Shown: positions 1,165 to 5,937 of the stretch, in pieces
Layout: every line of letters starts with the position of its first letter
Position numbering within the stretch: position 1 is the stretch's first letter
Origin: Defluviitaleaceae bacterium
GTDB lineage: Bacteria; Bacillota_A; Clostridia; Lachnospirales; WQUN01
Direction: 5' to 3'
DNA: 5,999 nt
Assembly: GCA_009779525.1 (NCBI GenBank)
Contig: WREB01000079.1
Location: forward strand, 1 to 5,999
The notes under the pieces: model-generated
The model's input: the letters and a program-made list of their open reading frames with translations, nothing else
Database searches by the model: none
What the model was told of the DNA's origin: nothing
Translations under genes and position numbers: made by a program

Positions 1165-1210
1165 AGGCGCCTCCTTGATTTTTTACGGAGGTTATTTTAA
1201 CATACCCGCC
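1165..1210. promoter_or_regulatory. Divergent alr / nadD intergenic region with back-to-back Shine-Dalgarno sites
   Basis: Only 46 bases separate the two start codons. The region holds the alr ribosome binding site (AAGGAGG on the minus strand, 1170-1176) and the probable nadD site (GGAGG on the plus strand, 1187-1191). CCTCC and GGAGG form a 5-base inverted repeat with a 12-base spacer, mainly T-rich. I could not find a convincing pair of -35 and -10 hexamers for either gene here. A TAAAAT on the minus strand (1194-1199) is -10-like but lacks a partner. The promoters may lie inside the opposing reading frames. Confidence 0.6.
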
Positions 1211-2536
1211 ATGAAAACCGCCGAATGGGATTTGCGAAACGTCAAAAGGCTCGCCGTGATCGGCGGGACGTTCGACCCGATCCATTACGGGCATTTGGCG
1301 CTCGCCGAAGCCGCGCTTTACGCCCTGCGTCCCCAGCGCGTGCTTTTTATTCCGGCGGGAAACCAGCCGCACAAGCGGGGCGCGCGCGTTTCGGCGAGGC
1401 GGCACAGGTATGCGATGACGCTTCTTGCGACGGCAAAGCATCCCTTCTTCGACATTTCCGAAATCGAAGTCCTTCGGGACGGCTTCTCGTACACCGTCGA
1501 CACCGTTCGGGCGCTTCGCGGGCTGCTCCCGCCGGAGGCGGAGCTATTTTTTATCGCCGGGACGGACGCGGTCGGCGAGATAGGGACATGGAAGGATCCG
1601 GGCGAGCTGCTTTCGATGTGCCGCTTGGCGTTCGCGCAAAGGCCCGGGACCGAAAGCGAAGCGACCCGGCGCGCGGTTCGCGAATTGCAAGGCTTTGGCG
1701 CGGCTGAGCCGGTCATGCTCGATATGCCCGCCATGGAAATTTCGTCCACGGAAATACGGAGGCGGATCGCCTGCGGAAAATCCGCGAGGTACCTGCTTCC
1801 GGGCGGCGTCCTCGAATACATAAAAAAGGAAAGGCTGTACTTAGAAGAAGGCGGTGATTCGTCCGGATTCGAATCCAAAGCGCCGTCGGACGACGAAATA
1901 GAATGCGAATCGTTAGAAGCCACCGACGAATGGGACGTGCGCGAATTTTTGCGCGAAACCTCCGCGTTCGACTTCGGCGCGGCCGAACGCGAACTGGAAC
2001 AGAGGCTTTCCGCGAAGCGCTTCAAGCACACGCGGGGCGTCGTGGCCGAGGCGGAAAGACTGGCTTCGATCTACGGCGAGGACATAGAGTCGGCCAAAAT
2101 CGCGGCGCTGCTCCACGACTGCGCGAAAGAATACGGCGACGCGAAGAAACGCTGCCTCTGCCGCCTTTGGGACGTTGCGACCGACGAGGCGATCGAAACG
2201 CACATCGATCTCGCGCACAGCCTGCTCGGCGCGGAGTCGGCGCGCAGGGACTTCGGGGTAAGGGATGAGAAAATCCTTCGCGCGATCCGCTACCACACCA
2301 CCGGCAACTACGGAATGACGCTCTTCGACAAGGTCGTGATGCTCGCCGACTACACCGAACCCTATAGGGGCGAGTACGGGGCGCTCAGTGAAATGCGCGC
2401 GTTAGCAGGCCGCGACATAGACGAGGCGCTTAGGGTCGGGATAAGGTTCGTGATGAAGCTGAACGCGCAAAGAGGGCGGATCGTGCATCCGTGGAGCCGC
2501 GCTGCGCTTGACTGGCTTGATAATAATAAAGAATAG
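1211..2536 (+). CDS. nadD: Fused nicotinate-nucleotide adenylyltransferase (NadD) and YqeK-like HD phosphohydrolase
   Basis: A 441-residue two-domain cytoplasmic protein. Residues 12-210 are NadD, which joins nicotinate mononucleotide and ATP to give nicotinate adenine dinucleotide and pyrophosphate. Evidence is GGTFDPIHYGHL (18-29, with the HxGH nucleotidyltransferase motif), FIPAGNQPHK (46-55), AGTDA (116-120) and ISSTEIRRRI (177-186). A Ser/Asp/Glu-rich linker covers roughly 212-250. Residues 265-441 match YqeK-type HD proteins, known as diadenosine tetraphosphate hydrolases: H273, H302-D303, H336, H362 in YHTTG and D380 in the LADYTEP segment are the expected metal ligands. In many Bacillota nadD and yqeK are adjacent separate genes; here they share one frame with no stop between them. 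The ATG at 1211 was chosen because the in-frame TTG at 1175 lies on the opposing alr ribosome binding site. However, the GGAGG at 1187-1191 is 19 bases from this ATG, so the exact start is uncertain. rsfS follows after 16 bases. Confidence 0.93.
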   Translation: MKTAEWDLRNVKRLAVIGGTFDPIHYGHLALAEAALYALRPQRVLFIPAGNQPHKRGARVSARRHRYAMTLLATAKHPFFDISEIEVLRDGFSYTVDTVRALRGLLPPEAELFFIAGTDAVGEIGTWKDPGELLSMCRLAFAQRPGTESEATRRAVRELQGFGAAEPVMLDMPAMEISSTEIRRRIACGKSARYLLPGGVLEYIKKERLYLEEGGDSSGFESKAPSDDEIECESLEATDEWDVREFLRETSAFDFGAAERELEQRLSAKRFKHTRGVVAEAERLASIYGEDIESAKIAALLHDCAKEYGDAKKRCLCRLWDVATDEAIETHIDLAHSLLGAESARRDFGVRDEKILRAIRYHTTGNYGMTLFDKVVMLADYTEPYRGEYGALSEMRALAGRDIDEALRVGIRFVMKLNAQRGRIVHPWSRAALDWLDNNKE

Positions 2537-2882: not shown

Positions 2883-3086
2883 TTAAACCGAGCGGGTGAC
2901 TTTCTCGGACCTGAGGCAGCGCGTGCAAACGTGCGCCTTCCTCACGTTCCCGGATTTTTCGACGATTTGAATTTTTTTGATGTTGGGCTTCCAGAAGCGG
3001 TTCGCCCTACGCGAGACCTGGCTGCGGGTGATGCTGATCCTGTGCCCCGTCCTCACGCTTTTGTCGCACACTTCGCACTTTGCCAT
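2883..3086 (-). CDS. rpmB: Large-subunit ribosomal protein bL28, four-cysteine (zinc-binding type) form
   Basis: A 67-residue basic protein of the 50S subunit. The L28 pattern is visible in the N-terminal CEVCDKSVRTGHRIS, the central RRANRFWKPNIKKIQIV (26-42) and the C-terminal CTRCLRSEKV. Cysteines come in two pairs, C4/C7 and C54/C57, the arrangement of the zinc-binding ('C+') version of L28; many bacteria have a paralogue without these cysteines. The start at 3086 (MAKCEVC) was chosen over an ATG two codons upstream because the AAGGA site is 7 bases from the former but nearly touches the latter. The gene has its own promoter just upstream, and its 3' end converges with rsfS. Confidence 0.95.
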   Translation of the reverse strand: MAKCEVCDKSVRTGHRISITRSQVSRRANRFWKPNIKKIQIVEKSGNVRKAHVCTRCLRSEKVTRSV

Positions 3087-3118
3087 GTTCATTTCCTTTC
3101 ACGCATATAAGACGCGGT

Positions 3119-3163: not shown

Positions 3164-5032
3164 TCAATCGCGCTTGCCAAACTGCCAAAATTTTGCGGAT
3201 GCGTCGCTTGGCATCCTCCAGAAACCGCGCGGCGAAAGGCTGACCTGGCCGACCGCCGGCCCGTCGGGCGAACACGAGCGCTTGAACTGGCCGGCGAAGA
3301 ACCTGCGCAAAAACACCTCGAGCCATTTTTTTATCTCGCCGCGTTCGTATTTGCCGTTAAACGCGCCGCAGGCGAGATAAAAAATCTTTTCCGGAGACTT
3401 GCCGCGCTTAAGCATGTGGTAGATAAAGAAGTCGTGCAGCTCGTAGGGCCCGACGATCGACTCCGTCTCCTGCGCCCCGACGCCTTCGCGTTCCGGAAGC
3501 AGCTCCGGCGAAATAGGGGTGCGTAAAATATCCTCAAGCACATCCCTTAAGCCGGCCCTTTTTTTTGCGGCCGCGGATATGACCGGCCTTATAAGGGTCT
3601 TTGGTATCGAAGCGTTTACGTTGTACATCGACATGTGGTCGCCGCCGTATGTCGCGAACCCGAGCGCGAGCTCGGAAAGGTCGCCTGTTCCGACCATGAA
3701 ACCCTTGTGCAGCGCGGCGTAATCCATCGCCACCTGCGTGCGCTCGCGCGCCTGCGCGTTTTCGTAGACGACTCCGTAATCGTCCGGCTCGCGCCCGATG
3801 TCTTCGAAATGCCCGCGCACCGCCTCGCCGATTTCTATTTCAACGAAGGTTACCCCGAGGCTTTCGGCAAGCAACCTCGCGTTTCGCCTCGTGCGGAAAG
3901 ATGTGCCAAAGCACGGCATCGAAAGGGCGCGTATGTTTTTTAAATCAAGGCCCGTCCGCAAGGCGGCCTCAACCGCGACAAGCAGCGCGAGCGTCGAGTC
4001 AAGCCCGCCCGAAACCGCGACGACGACGCTTTCGGCGCCCGTAGCCTCGATCCTTTGCGCGAGTCCCGCGGACTGCATCATAAGCGTTTCAAGGCAGTAG
4101 GCCTCGAGGTCTTCCTCGCGGTCAGGCAGGAACGGACGCGTGCTCAGCCTGCGTTCCAAATCGTTTTCGTTCTCGTCGAAGTAAAAGGCGGCGCGGCGCG
4201 ACGAATTTTTTTTTGTTCGCGTTTCGGGCGAAAGCGGCGCCGATTCGGAGTCGACGTCCGCGCGGACCGTTTCGTTTTCGAAAAGTTTCGCTTCCGCTAC
4301 AATTTCGCCGTCCTCGACGATCAGGTTGTGGCCGGAGTAGACCGCGTCGGTGGTCGACTCCCCCAGCCCCGCGCAGGCGCAGACATAGACGCAAGCAAGC
4401 CTCTCGGACTGGCACGAAACCGCCCCGCGCCATTTCGCGGGCCCGAAGGCGCGGTCTCGCAAAGCCGAAATGTTGACGACGATTCTCGCGCCTTCGGGGA
4501 CTGACAGGCTTGACGGCGGCGTCGGCAAATAAAAATCGCTTCCGATTTCGACGGCGAAGGCAAAGTCTTTTTTCGTTAAATGACAAAAAATCAGATCGGC
4601 GCCGAACGGAACTTCGCCGCCGCAAAACTCAATCGTTTCAAAATTTGCGCGGTCTCCCGGCGAAAAAACGCCGCCCGAAGTTCCAGCCTTAGGCGCGATT
4701 CCGACTAGCTTCCCTCCGCAGACGACCGCGGCGCAATTAAAAAGCCTTCCGCGCGTCCTGACGGGAAGCCCCGCGACGACGGCCATTTTTTTATTTTGGC
4801 TCGCTTTAACGATTTTTAAAAGCGCTTCCTCCGCGCCGTCCGTCAAATGAGCGTTTAAAAACAAGTCGCCGCAAGTCGCGCCGGTCACGCACAGTTCGGG
4901 GAGCGCAAGCAAATCGCAGCCGACGGCGGAAGCCTGTTCCATCAAATTAATTATCGCGGCGGCGTTGTGGCCGCAGTCCGTCGGTTTGACGCGCGGCGTC
5001 GCCGCGGCGGCGCGCACGAAGCCGTGTTCCAT
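3164..5032 (-). CDS. nadE: NAD+ synthetase with degenerate N-terminal glutaminase domain
   Basis: Amidates nicotinate adenine dinucleotide to NAD+ with ATP, the last step of NAD synthesis; the 622 residues match the long glutamine-dependent form. Residues 1-270 are a nitrilase-fold glutaminase domain. E46 (LPELCVTG) and K115 (GIAPKAG) of the Glu-Lys-Cys triad are present, but the cysteine position is G164 (VEIGSDFYLP; the family has EICED). The loop after K115 is also short and lacks the usual LPNYxEFYE-like sequence. Residues 300-622 are the synthetase domain and look complete: SGGLDS P-loop (341-346), YENAQARERTQ (423-433), GTGDLSELALG (448-458), GDHMSMY (464-470), then GPYELHDFF and FKRSC-PDGP near the end. 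The ATG at 5032 has GGGAG six bases upstream; an in-frame ATG at 5074 lies inside the -10 box and is rejected. I infer an ammonia-dependent enzyme. NAD synthetase identity is certain; glutaminase loss is likely. Confidence 0.95.
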   Translation of the reverse strand: MEHGFVRAAAATPRVKPTDCGHNAAAIINLMEQASAVGCDLLALPELCVTGATCGDLFLNAHLTDGAEEALLKIVKASQNKKMAVVAGLPVRTRGRLFNCAAVVCGGKLVGIAPKAGTSGGVFSPGDRANFETIEFCGGEVPFGADLIFCHLTKKDFAFAVEIGSDFYLPTPPSSLSVPEGARIVVNISALRDRAFGPAKWRGAVSCQSERLACVYVCACAGLGESTTDAVYSGHNLIVEDGEIVAEAKLFENETVRADVDSESAPLSPETRTKKNSSRRAAFYFDENENDLERRLSTRPFLPDREEDLEAYCLETLMMQSAGLAQRIEATGAESVVVAVSGGLDSTLALLVAVEAALRTGLDLKNIRALSMPCFGTSFRTRRNARLLAESLGVTFVEIEIGEAVRGHFEDIGREPDDYGVVYENAQARERTQVAMDYAALHKGFMVGTGDLSELALGFATYGGDHMSMYNVNASIPKTLIRPVISAAAKKRAGLRDVLEDILRTPISPELLPEREGVGAQETESIVGPYELHDFFIYHMLKRGKSPEKIFYLACGAFNGKYERGEIKKWLEVFLRRFFAGQFKRSCSPDGPAVGQVSLSPRGFWRMPSDASAKFWQFGKRD

Positions 5033-5072
5033 AAAAAACTCCCGGCCGGCGTAGCCATTTTTATACGGCGGC

Positions 5073-5101
5073 ATTATACCATTTAAAGGCCTGCCGGTTA
5101 A
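5073..5101 (-). promoter_or_regulatory. Predicted sigma-70-type promoter of nadE (consensus extended -10)
   Basis: On the minus strand a perfect TATAAT (5073-5078) is preceded by TG one base upstream, forming an extended -10. A -35-like TTAACC (5096-5101) lies 17 bases further upstream. The predicted start near 5066 gives a 34-base leader with the GGGAG ribosome binding site of nadE. This is the strongest promoter-like signal in the window. The -35 sits in an imperfect palindrome (CCGG-TTAAG-CCGG, 5094-5106), which could be an operator or chance in GC-rich DNA. The stretch 5102-5161 shows nothing else I can name. Confidence 0.7.
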
Positions 5102-5214: not shown

Positions 5215-5937
5215 ATGGTTTACTATTATACGTACGGAGGCAGGACGAGAGTCTTCGCCGAGGCGCTGGCGGGCGTTTTGGGATGGGAAGCGCATGAGCT
5301 TAAATCCGATTTAAACGAGAGGGGAAGGCTTAGCTTTCTCTTTAAGGCGCTGGGACTCGCCATCACGAAAAAGCCCTATCCCATAACGAACATGCCTTCC
5401 GTCGACGCGGCGGAAATATACGTCTGCGCGCCGGTTTGGGGAGGCCATATGGCTTCGCCCGCCAAATATTTTGTGGAAAACGCCGGGTTGAAGGATAAAA
5501 AGGTAAACGTGCTTTTAACTTGCGGCAACATTCTTTCCGGCGAGAAGTTCAAGCGCAAGGCCAGGGAAGCGCTTGCGGCCGCGGGCTGCGCGGAGGGGAA
5601 AATAATGGTCTTCGCGACGGTCGAATCGTTGCCGGAGGCCGAAGTGATAACGGGGCAGCTAAAAGAAATGCTTGACGAAAGCGGCGAGCCGAAGCCTGAC
5701 CTGACGGAACCGCTTATTATCGATCCGTTGCCGGCGCCGGAAGCGGAACCAGCCGCTCAGACGGAAGAATTATTGGCGCAGACCGACGAAAAAAACATAT
5801 CCGAATCCGCTCCGGCGGAAGAAGCGGCCGGACGACGGGACGAAAACTCGGAGCCCGCGTCGTTCGACGAAGCGCCGGGACAGCCGGACGCGCAAACGGC
5901 TTCGGAACAAACCGCGCAGCCGGATGAGCCGGCTTGA
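5215..5937 (+). CDS. Flavodoxin-like protein with long acidic low-complexity C-terminal tail
   Basis: Residues 1-155 resemble short flavodoxin-fold proteins. The N-terminal YYYTYGGRTR (3-12) fits the FMN phosphate-binding loop (T/S-x-x-G-x-T) right after the first beta strand. IYVCAPVWGGHMASPAKYF (68-86) matches the second strand and flavin-contacting loop, and VNVLLTCGN (97-105) the third. The likely role is FMN-dependent electron transfer or quinone/flavin reduction in the cytoplasm; the partner is unknown. Residues 156-240 form a tail rich in Glu, Asp, Pro, Ala and Gln, with loose QTEE / QTDE / QPDA / QPDE repeats, probably disordered; typical flavodoxins end near 140-180. No signal peptide or membrane segment is visible. 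The ATG at 5215 has GAGGGG eight bases upstream. The reading frame ends 14 bases inside mtaB, so the two are probably one transcript. Confidence 0.8.
   Translation: MVYYYTYGGRTRVFAEALAGVLGWEAHELKSDLNERGRLSFLFKALGLAITKKPYPITNMPSVDAAEIYVCAPVWGGHMASPAKYFVENAGLKDKKVNVLLTCGNILSGEKFKRKAREALAAAGCAEGKIMVFATVESLPEAEVITGQLKEMLDESGEPKPDLTEPLIIDPLPAPEAEPAAQTEELLAQTDEKNISESAPAEEAAGRRDENSEPASFDEAPGQPDAQTASEQTAQPDEPA

What the first reader, a model, noticed from the sequence alone, without database searches (positions are those of the whole stretch)
4530..4570. NadE glutaminase domain lacks its catalytic cysteine
The codon at the nucleophile position reads GGA (Gly164), giving VEIGSD where glutamine-dependent NAD synthetases have EICED. 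The catalytic Glu (E46) and Lys (K115) and the whole synthetase domain are kept, so the alignment is unambiguous and the gene is not broken. A glutaminase domain without its cysteine cannot release ammonia by the known mechanism. The enzyme may use free ammonia or ammonia delivered by a separate glutaminase, with the dead domain kept for structure or regulation.
Basis: partly seen in the sequence, partly recalled or inferred. Interest (0 to 1): 0.72.

Follow-up and report, generated by a model that had tools for sequence, protein, structure and literature searches.

The report
NAD synthetase with a dead glutaminase
This bacterial enzyme makes the coenzyme NAD but has lost the part that cuts ammonia out of glutamine, and related bacteria have lost the same part many separate times, sometimes in several other enzymes of the same cell, which suggests they build with free ammonia instead of glutamine.

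The parts
3167..5074 (-). nadE, two-domain NAD synthetase, 636 aa from the first ATG; likely start Met15 at 5032 (622 aa)
   Evidence: NCBIfam NF002730 675 bits, cut-off 473; relatives start at Met15
4241..5014 (-). glutaminase (CN_hydrolase) domain, residues 21-278, without nucleophile
4541..4543 (-). codon GGA, Gly178 (Gly164 from Met15) at the position of the catalytic Cys
4538..4540 (-). Ser179 in place of gate Glu177(Tb)
   Evidence: role of Glu177 from PMC6946656
4667..4687 (-). remnant (7 residues) of the YRE loop, 14 residues in cysteine-bearing relatives
   Evidence: role of the loop from PMC6946656
4877..4879 (-). Ala66 in place of invariant Tyr58(Tb), tunnel constriction 1
4895..4897 (-). 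Glu60, catalytic Glu52(Tb), kept
4688..4690 (-). Lys129, catalytic Lys121(Tb), kept
3383..4069 (-). NAD synthetase domain (residues 336-564), motif SGGLDS kept
   Evidence: Pfam PF02540 84 bits
3254..3256 (-). Ala607 in place of tunnel Lys644(Tb)
   Evidence: Lys644 as constriction 2A from PMC6946656
3221..3223 (-). Phe618 in place of Asp656(Tb), conserved C-terminal loop
1175..2536 (+). nadD-yqeK fusion: nicotinate-nucleotide adenylyltransferase (makes the substrate of NadE) plus HD hydrolase
   Evidence: TIGR00482 171 bits, TIGR00488 113 bits

Best explanation
The gene encodes a working NAD synthetase that takes free ammonia straight into the synthetase half. The N-terminal nitrilase-type domain is a pseudoenzyme: it cannot form the glutamyl-thioester, has lost the loop that binds glutamine and couples the two sites, and is kept because the subunit and oligomer are built around it. 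The change is recurrent: once ammonia is plentiful the glutaminase is released from selection, the nucleophile goes mostly to Gly, the YRE loop shrinks, and tunnel residues of the synthetase half follow. In several lineages the same happened to CarA, GuaA, TrpG or PyrG of the same cell. Shown: the sequence changes, the recurrence, relaxed but purifying selection in one dead lineage, and no second working NadE found in related dead genomes. Inferred: the activity, the ammonia source, the order of events, the structural role, and that the window's organism shares the wider loss.
For: Gly at the nucleophile plus loss of YRE loop, Tyr58, Glu177, Lys644, Asp656. Across 257 distinct long NadEs, window included: loop shorter than 14 in 24 of 29 rows without Cys (23 of 28 without L171, whose frame is broken there), 0 of 228 with Cys; Tyr58 changed in 18 of 29, 0 of 228; Glu177 changed in 13 of 29, 1 of 228; Lys121 changed in 7 of 29, 0 of 228 (one gap among the 29 for Tyr58 and Lys121). 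Tree on the synthetase domain alone: at least 18 changes of state, 12 forced by starred branches (quick method). 42 of the 120 proteins listed for P0062 have Gly. dN/dS, three pairs among three dead Alistipes/Rikenellaceae rows: glutaminase 0.19-0.26, synthetase 0.079-0.086; 12 live pairs: 0.067-0.130 and 0.042-0.111. No second NadE-level match (over 35 bits) in 6 of 6 dead genomes outside the Alistipes group and 10 of 10 further dead Clostridia. CarA dead 5 of 9 v 2 of 42, p 0.001; GuaA without working glutaminase 6 of 11 v 1 of 41, p 0.0001. In 4 of 4 genomes of the Alistipes group examined, each class I GATase found (CarA, PyrG, GuaA) is dead. NadE also uses free ammonia (abstract of PMC6946656).
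Against: No assay. The window's genome is not held, so a second NadE or live CarA/GuaA there cannot be excluded. Catalytic Glu (26 of 29) and Lys (21 of 29) are mostly kept, more than free decay would predict. On the tree only 5 independent pairs stand on supported branches, and the link of NadE death with CarA/GuaA death is not significant (median p 0.25; 3.5 pairs in favour, 0.1 against). Four of nine dead-NadE Clostridia keep a live CarA, five of eleven a full GuaA, and T. parvum keeps both. In 7 of 8 further genomes of the Alistipes family with a dead NadE the glutaminases that I read are live, so NadE death alone does not mean a whole-cell switch. Lone or half GuaA copies also occur beside a full one in six live-NadE genomes. 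Most genomes are drafts.
Confidence: 0.8

Rival explanations
1. The old glutaminase pocket has become an ammonia funnel: small Gly and the missing loop open the bottleneck so that free ammonia enters there and runs down the old tunnel.
For: YRE loop residues, Tyr58 and Pro204 form the major bottleneck (PMC6946656); loop and Tyr are what is lost most; Gly, the smallest residue, stands in 24 of 29 distinct rows.
Against: Tunnel residues of the synthetase half erode too: Asp656 kept in 38% and Arg658 in 24% of dead rows against 99% and 97%. Gly may simply relax a strained nucleophile elbow (recalled).
Confidence: 0.15
2. The dead domain is a sensor or docking site (for example of glutamine or of a protein) that regulates the synthetase.
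For: The domain is retained in the dead rows and is under purifying selection in the one lineage tested; PII control of NadE is reported elsewhere (PMC7196632, search listing only).
Against: Glutamine-contacting loop lost; dN/dS 2.4 to 3.1 times that of the synthetase half; in six genomes of one family the protein has shrunk to about 453-471 aa.
Confidence: 0.1
3. A separate glutaminase feeds the enzyme, as in the two-subunit NadE of Thermus.
For: Two-subunit NadEs exist (PMC3376133); 8 of 16 dead genomes have at least one CN_hydrolase match other than NadE.
Against: In the other 8 of 16 the dead domain is the only CN_hydrolase match; none was found among the five other window proteins scanned.
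Confidence: 0.05
4. Assembly or sequencing error, or a decaying pseudogene.
For: One metagenomic contig; nearest relative 54% identical; long branch. One dead relative, L171, has an in-frame stop.
Against: Two base changes needed; six concerted changes; open frame with intact synthetase motifs; Gly also in P0030, P0121, P0122.
Confidence: 0.02

Closest known systems
Glutamine-dependent NAD synthetase of M. tuberculosis (two-domain, type F)
   Different: No Cys nucleophile; YRE loop halved; Tyr58, Glu177, Lys644, Asp656 changed
Mammalian CPS1, ammonia-dependent carbamoyl phosphate synthetase
   Same: Keeps an inactive glutaminase-like domain in an N-terminal region whose removal drastically lowers activity, and uses ammonia (PMC9445089 passage; PMC6022934 passages)
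   Different: Different enzyme and glutaminase class (class I against nitrilase type); here recurrent in bacteria, and in some genomes in several enzymes at once
Archaeal PurF' proteins
   Same: Amidotransferase relatives without nucleophile Cys, suggested as possibly ammonia-dependent (PMC3261824 passages)
   Different: Paralogues beside a live PurF; here the dead enzyme is the only NadE found in the Clostridia and Treponema genomes examined
Single-domain, ammonia-dependent NadE (E. coli, Salmonella)
   Same: Expected chemistry: ammonia as in vivo donor (PMC3376133)
   Different: No glutaminase domain at all; the window's enzyme keeps the domain

Membership tests
NAD synthetase (NadE), two-domain | Match to the family model above its cut-off, over full length | tested here: met
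   NF002730 675 bits v 473, residues 15-631
NAD synthetase (NadE), two-domain | Synthetase motif SGGxDS and synthetase fold | tested here: met
   SGGLDS invariant in alignment A1; fold match
Glutamine-dependent NAD synthetase (glutamine-hydrolysing) | Cys nucleophile of the C-E-K triad | tested here: not met
   Gly at the position
Glutamine-dependent NAD synthetase (glutamine-hydrolysing) | Glu and Lys of the triad | tested here: met
   Glu60, Lys129
Glutamine-dependent NAD synthetase (glutamine-hydrolysing) | YRE loop with second Glu | tested here: not met
   7 residues instead of 14, no Tyr or Glu in it
Glutamine-dependent NAD synthetase (glutamine-hydrolysing) | Glutamine-dependent activity | not testable with these tools
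   needs an assay
Ammonia-dependent amidotransferase with pseudoglutaminase (CPS1-like way of working) | Glutaminase-fold domain retained without nucleophile | tested here: met
Ammonia-dependent amidotransferase with pseudoglutaminase (CPS1-like way of working) | Ammonia as the donor in the cell | not testable with these tools
   inferred from the absence of another working NadE in related dead genomes

The most novel reading that the evidence does not exclude
Some bacterial lineages, several of them from animal guts, have given up glutamine as amide donor for much of biosynthesis: NAD, carbamoyl phosphate, GMP, CTP and anthranilate are made with free ammonia by amidotransferases whose glutaminase domains are dead or cut away, reached many times independently; the window's organism is one of them. 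The four Alistipes/Rikenellaceae-labelled genomes, where every class I and NadE glutaminase found is dead, would be the end state.
Probability: 0.45. Interest if true: 0.85.

Novelty: new variant of a known kind. Interest (0 to 1): 0.72.

Why it matters
Databases call such proteins glutamine-hydrolysing NAD synthases (P0030 is named so by its source), and the reference study treats fused NadEs as glutamine users (PMC3376133). Dead domains in 10 of 55 long NadEs of a Clostridia draw would make that rule unsafe for annotation and metabolic models. The parallel losses in CarA, GuaA, PyrG and TrpG offer a sequence-readable marker of life on ammonia, and make testable the old question of why cells route ammonia through glutamine. 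They also give natural replicates of gate and tunnel loss in a coupled enzyme.

Tried and rejected
Own-genome search: no genome is held for the window, so a second NadE, nitrilase, CarA or GuaA of this organism could not be sought. The other window genes gave no tblastn hit (E 1e-5) in the 80 loci, so neither synteny nor lineage could be read from neighbours. Independent-pairs test of NadE death against CarA/GuaA death: underpowered (5 pairs on starred branches, 11 on all branches; median p 0.25). One-clade test for the four Gly sequences of the window's clade: a single loss there is not rejected (p 0.119). Tree: quick method, with long branches (L194, L193, L195, the window, L189) whose places are unsure. 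Chance as account of Gly: under a one-step model from a Cys codon with Gly 1 in 7, 15 or more Gly of 18 events has p about 1e-10; the split into events is my own reading of the tree, and strain relief at the nucleophile elbow (recalled) may explain the bias without ammonia use. Class II glutaminases (PurF, GlmS, AsnB) were not examined: no genome searches left. Literature: ten searches (only the CC-licensed PMC library) listed no paper that I could recognise as describing NadE without its cysteine or a genome-wide loss of glutaminases; subscription papers are not covered.

Rows dropped, unread or unclear. Outside the GuaA count: G050 (63-aa fragment), G034, G066, G084 and dead G003, G018, G060, G071 (none found). 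Outside the CarA count: G107, G012, G052 and dead G001, G002, G035, G060, G071, G128 (none found). T. parvum (G004) keeps CarA and GuaA and is left out of both. A genome counts as live if one cysteine-bearing copy was read; a second CarA-level match in ten live-NadE genomes (G066, G121, G070, G036, G106, G123, G112, G127, G073, G040) was not read. Of 49 GATase matches, 30 came as loci and were read, plus the half GuaAs from earlier loci. Names of class I enzymes are mine from frame length, domain place and motif; of 19 checked against NCBIfam, 19 pass the cut-off of a model of that name (L295 only that of the TrpG/PabA subfamily). L171 (G060) has an in-frame stop in the loop and was used only for the open part after it; it is in the dead counts. 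G128 lies below the family cut-off but is in the 55; G039 (NadE in two frames) was not fetched; G003 was the centre of the draw and is left out of the 55. L015's nucleophile alignment (Ala next to Gly) is ambiguous. The aligned Cys of L242 lies in a shrunken domain and is in my reading an artefact. The 30 Bacteroidia rows are the best-scoring ones, not a random draw. The three dead dN/dS pairs share one lineage. In one search the loop count runs over fewer columns than, so its lengths are not comparable.

Full report
The observation. The window carries nadE on the minus strand (5074-3167). It matches NF002730 (two-domain NAD synthase) at 675 bits against a cut-off of 473, Pfam CN_hydrolase and NAD_synthase, and the M. 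tuberculosis enzyme at E about 1e-110. In that alignment the catalytic Cys176 faces Gly178 (codon GGA, 4543-4541); Glu52 and Lys121 are kept.

Recurrence. Of 257 distinct sequences, the window included, 228 have Cys, 24 Gly, 2 Ser, 2 Ala, 1 Asp. A tree from the synthetase domain alone (104 rows) needs 18 changes of state, of which starred branches force 12; dead rows often sit beside live ones (P0012 with P0071, 85% identical there; L010 with L002, 82%). Two further protein searches brought the protein set to 349: 300 Cys, 48 Gly, 1 Ser. Of the 120 listed for P0062, 42 have Gly; they form tight groups in which the state is stable, mixed with cysteine-bearing neighbours. The window sits in a clade of five (support 100/100): P0030, P0121, P0122 and the window have Gly, P0002 has Cys; one loss or more is possible there. 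In an even draw of 118 Clostridia-class genomes, 10 of the 55 long NadEs that I read lack the cysteine, the chosen centre left out.

Concerted change. In the 228 cysteine-bearing rows the loop is always 14 residues and Tyr58 always Tyr (one row with a gap); in the 29 others the loop is shorter in 24 and Tyr58 is changed in 18. Asp656 falls from 98.7% to 38% and Arg658 from 97% to 24%. Catalytic Glu stays in 26 of 29 and Lys in 21 of 29 (one further gap each). The domain is not simply rotting: in three pairs from one dead lineage dN/dS is 0.19-0.26 in the dead domain and about 0.08 in the synthetase half, against 0.067-0.130 and 0.042-0.111 in 12 live pairs. So constraint is relaxed and still purifying, as expected of a structural part.

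A second NadE type. In the family of an Alistipes-labelled genome (G006) another NadE of about 525 aa occurs. In the 30 best-scoring Bacteroidia rows and 4 Clostridia rows its Cys is present 34 of 34 times. In 42 genomes of that group (38 from the family draw, G006 included, plus G007 and G009-G011), 36 have full-length forms with Gly (34), Asp (1) or Asn (1); in 6 the protein has 453-471 aa and no active site can be aligned. This looks like an old loss that has lasted.

Is it the only NadE? Of 11 genomes of the named loci, the 5 from Alistipes or Rikenellaceae MAGs carry the dead long form plus the dead 525-aa form; the 6 others, Treponema parvum with its complete genome included (Ser instead of Cys), have no other match above 35 bits. 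In 10 of 10 further dead Clostridia no second match above 35 bits was found; G180 has the dead 525-aa form and G143 none. In 8 of 16 dead genomes the dead domain is the only CN_hydrolase match, which argues against a separate nitrilase-type glutaminase. Draft genomes may hide genes.

Other glutaminases. I then read class I glutaminases in genomes with dead and with live long NadE (names checked). CarA lacks its Cys in 5 of 9 dead-NadE Clostridia against 2 of 42 live-NadE ones (p 0.001; smaller-genome controls 1 of 14, p 0.018). GuaA lacks a working glutaminase (lone ATPase, half domain, or no Cys) in 6 of 11 against 1 of 41 (p 0.0001; smaller-genome controls 1 of 14, p 0.021). G017 has lost the nucleophile in NadE, CarA, GuaA and TrpG/PabA; G057 in NadE, CarA and PyrG, with a lone GuaA. 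HisH-like domains keep Cys where I read them. Against: G003, G005, G008 and G022 have dead NadE with live CarA; two live-NadE genomes (G030, G026) have a dead CarA and G084 a dead TrpG; lone or half GuaA copies occur beside a full one in six live-NadE genomes; and the test on independent pairs is underpowered (median p 0.25), so kinship may explain part of the link. In the Alistipes group, four genomes (G006, G007 labelled Alistipes; G010, G011 labelled Rikenellaceae) show CarA with Ser, PyrG with Gly or Asn, and GuaA with only the first part of its glutaminase domain: each class I domain found (3 of 3 per genome) is dead, on top of both NadEs. Of eight other genomes of that family, seven have Cys in the glutaminases that I read, and G162 has lost it in CarA.

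How it works. The most likely mechanism is that free ammonia reaches the adenylated intermediate in the synthetase half directly, as in single-domain NadE, for which ammonia is the in vivo donor (PMC3376133, three sections read). The dead domain stays because the protein is built on it. CPS1 is the close parallel: ammonia-dependent, with an inactive glutaminase-like domain, and removal of the N-terminal part that holds it drastically lowers activity (PMC9445089 passage). A role as ammonia funnel is possible, but tunnel residues are eroding as well.

Novelty. Pseudoglutaminase domains are known (CPS1; archaeal PurF', PMC3261824 passages). A NadE of this kind, its many origins, and its company of dead CarA, GuaA, PyrG and TrpG were not found in ten searches of the held library. 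I file it as a new variant of a known kind: a NAD synthetase by descent, not a glutamine-dependent one by its tested features, working like CPS1.

Limits. No enzyme was assayed, the window's genome is not held, most genomes are drafts, class II glutaminases were not examined, and habitat ammonium was not measured; several named MAGs come from ruminant guts by their titles, which fits but does not show ammonia-rich life.

Noticed in passing
G006, G007, G010, G011 (loci L487, L489-L491, L500-L503, L103, L105, L106, L110): Alistipes/Rikenellaceae-labelled genomes in which CarA, PyrG and GuaA have all lost the glutaminase nucleophile (GuaA by loss of most of the domain), beside two dead NadEs.
   Followed up: partly
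L340 (G116), L348 (G074), L349 (G022), L479 (G089): A GuaA form of 436-448 aa with only the first ~76 positions of the glutaminase domain; sole GuaA found in G116, second copy beside a full-length one in the other three.
   Followed up: partly
L315 (Treponema parvum, G004): Second CTP-synthase-like copy with Asp at the nucleophile beside a normal one.
   Followed up: no
L241-L246: NadE of about 453-471 aa in which the glutaminase domain has shrunk beyond recognition of its active site.
   Followed up: partly
L394 (G030), L447 (G026), L389 (G084): Genomes with a live NadE but a dead CarA (G030, G026) or TrpG-like protein (G084, Asn).
   Followed up: no
L171 (G060): Dead NadE with an in-frame stop inside the shortened loop; pseudogene, split gene or draft error.
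   Followed up: no
window 1175-2536 +: nadD and yqeK fused in one 453-aa frame.
   Followed up: no
window 5215-5937 +: 240-aa frame with no Pfam or NCBIfam match; the start looks flavodoxin-like, the tail is rich in Glu, Pro and Ala. A frame starting near 5924 looks like MtaB (both by eye).
   Followed up: no
window 2883-3092 -: Ribosomal protein L28 scoring below its NCBIfam cut-off (40.8 v 48.3 bits).
   Followed up: no
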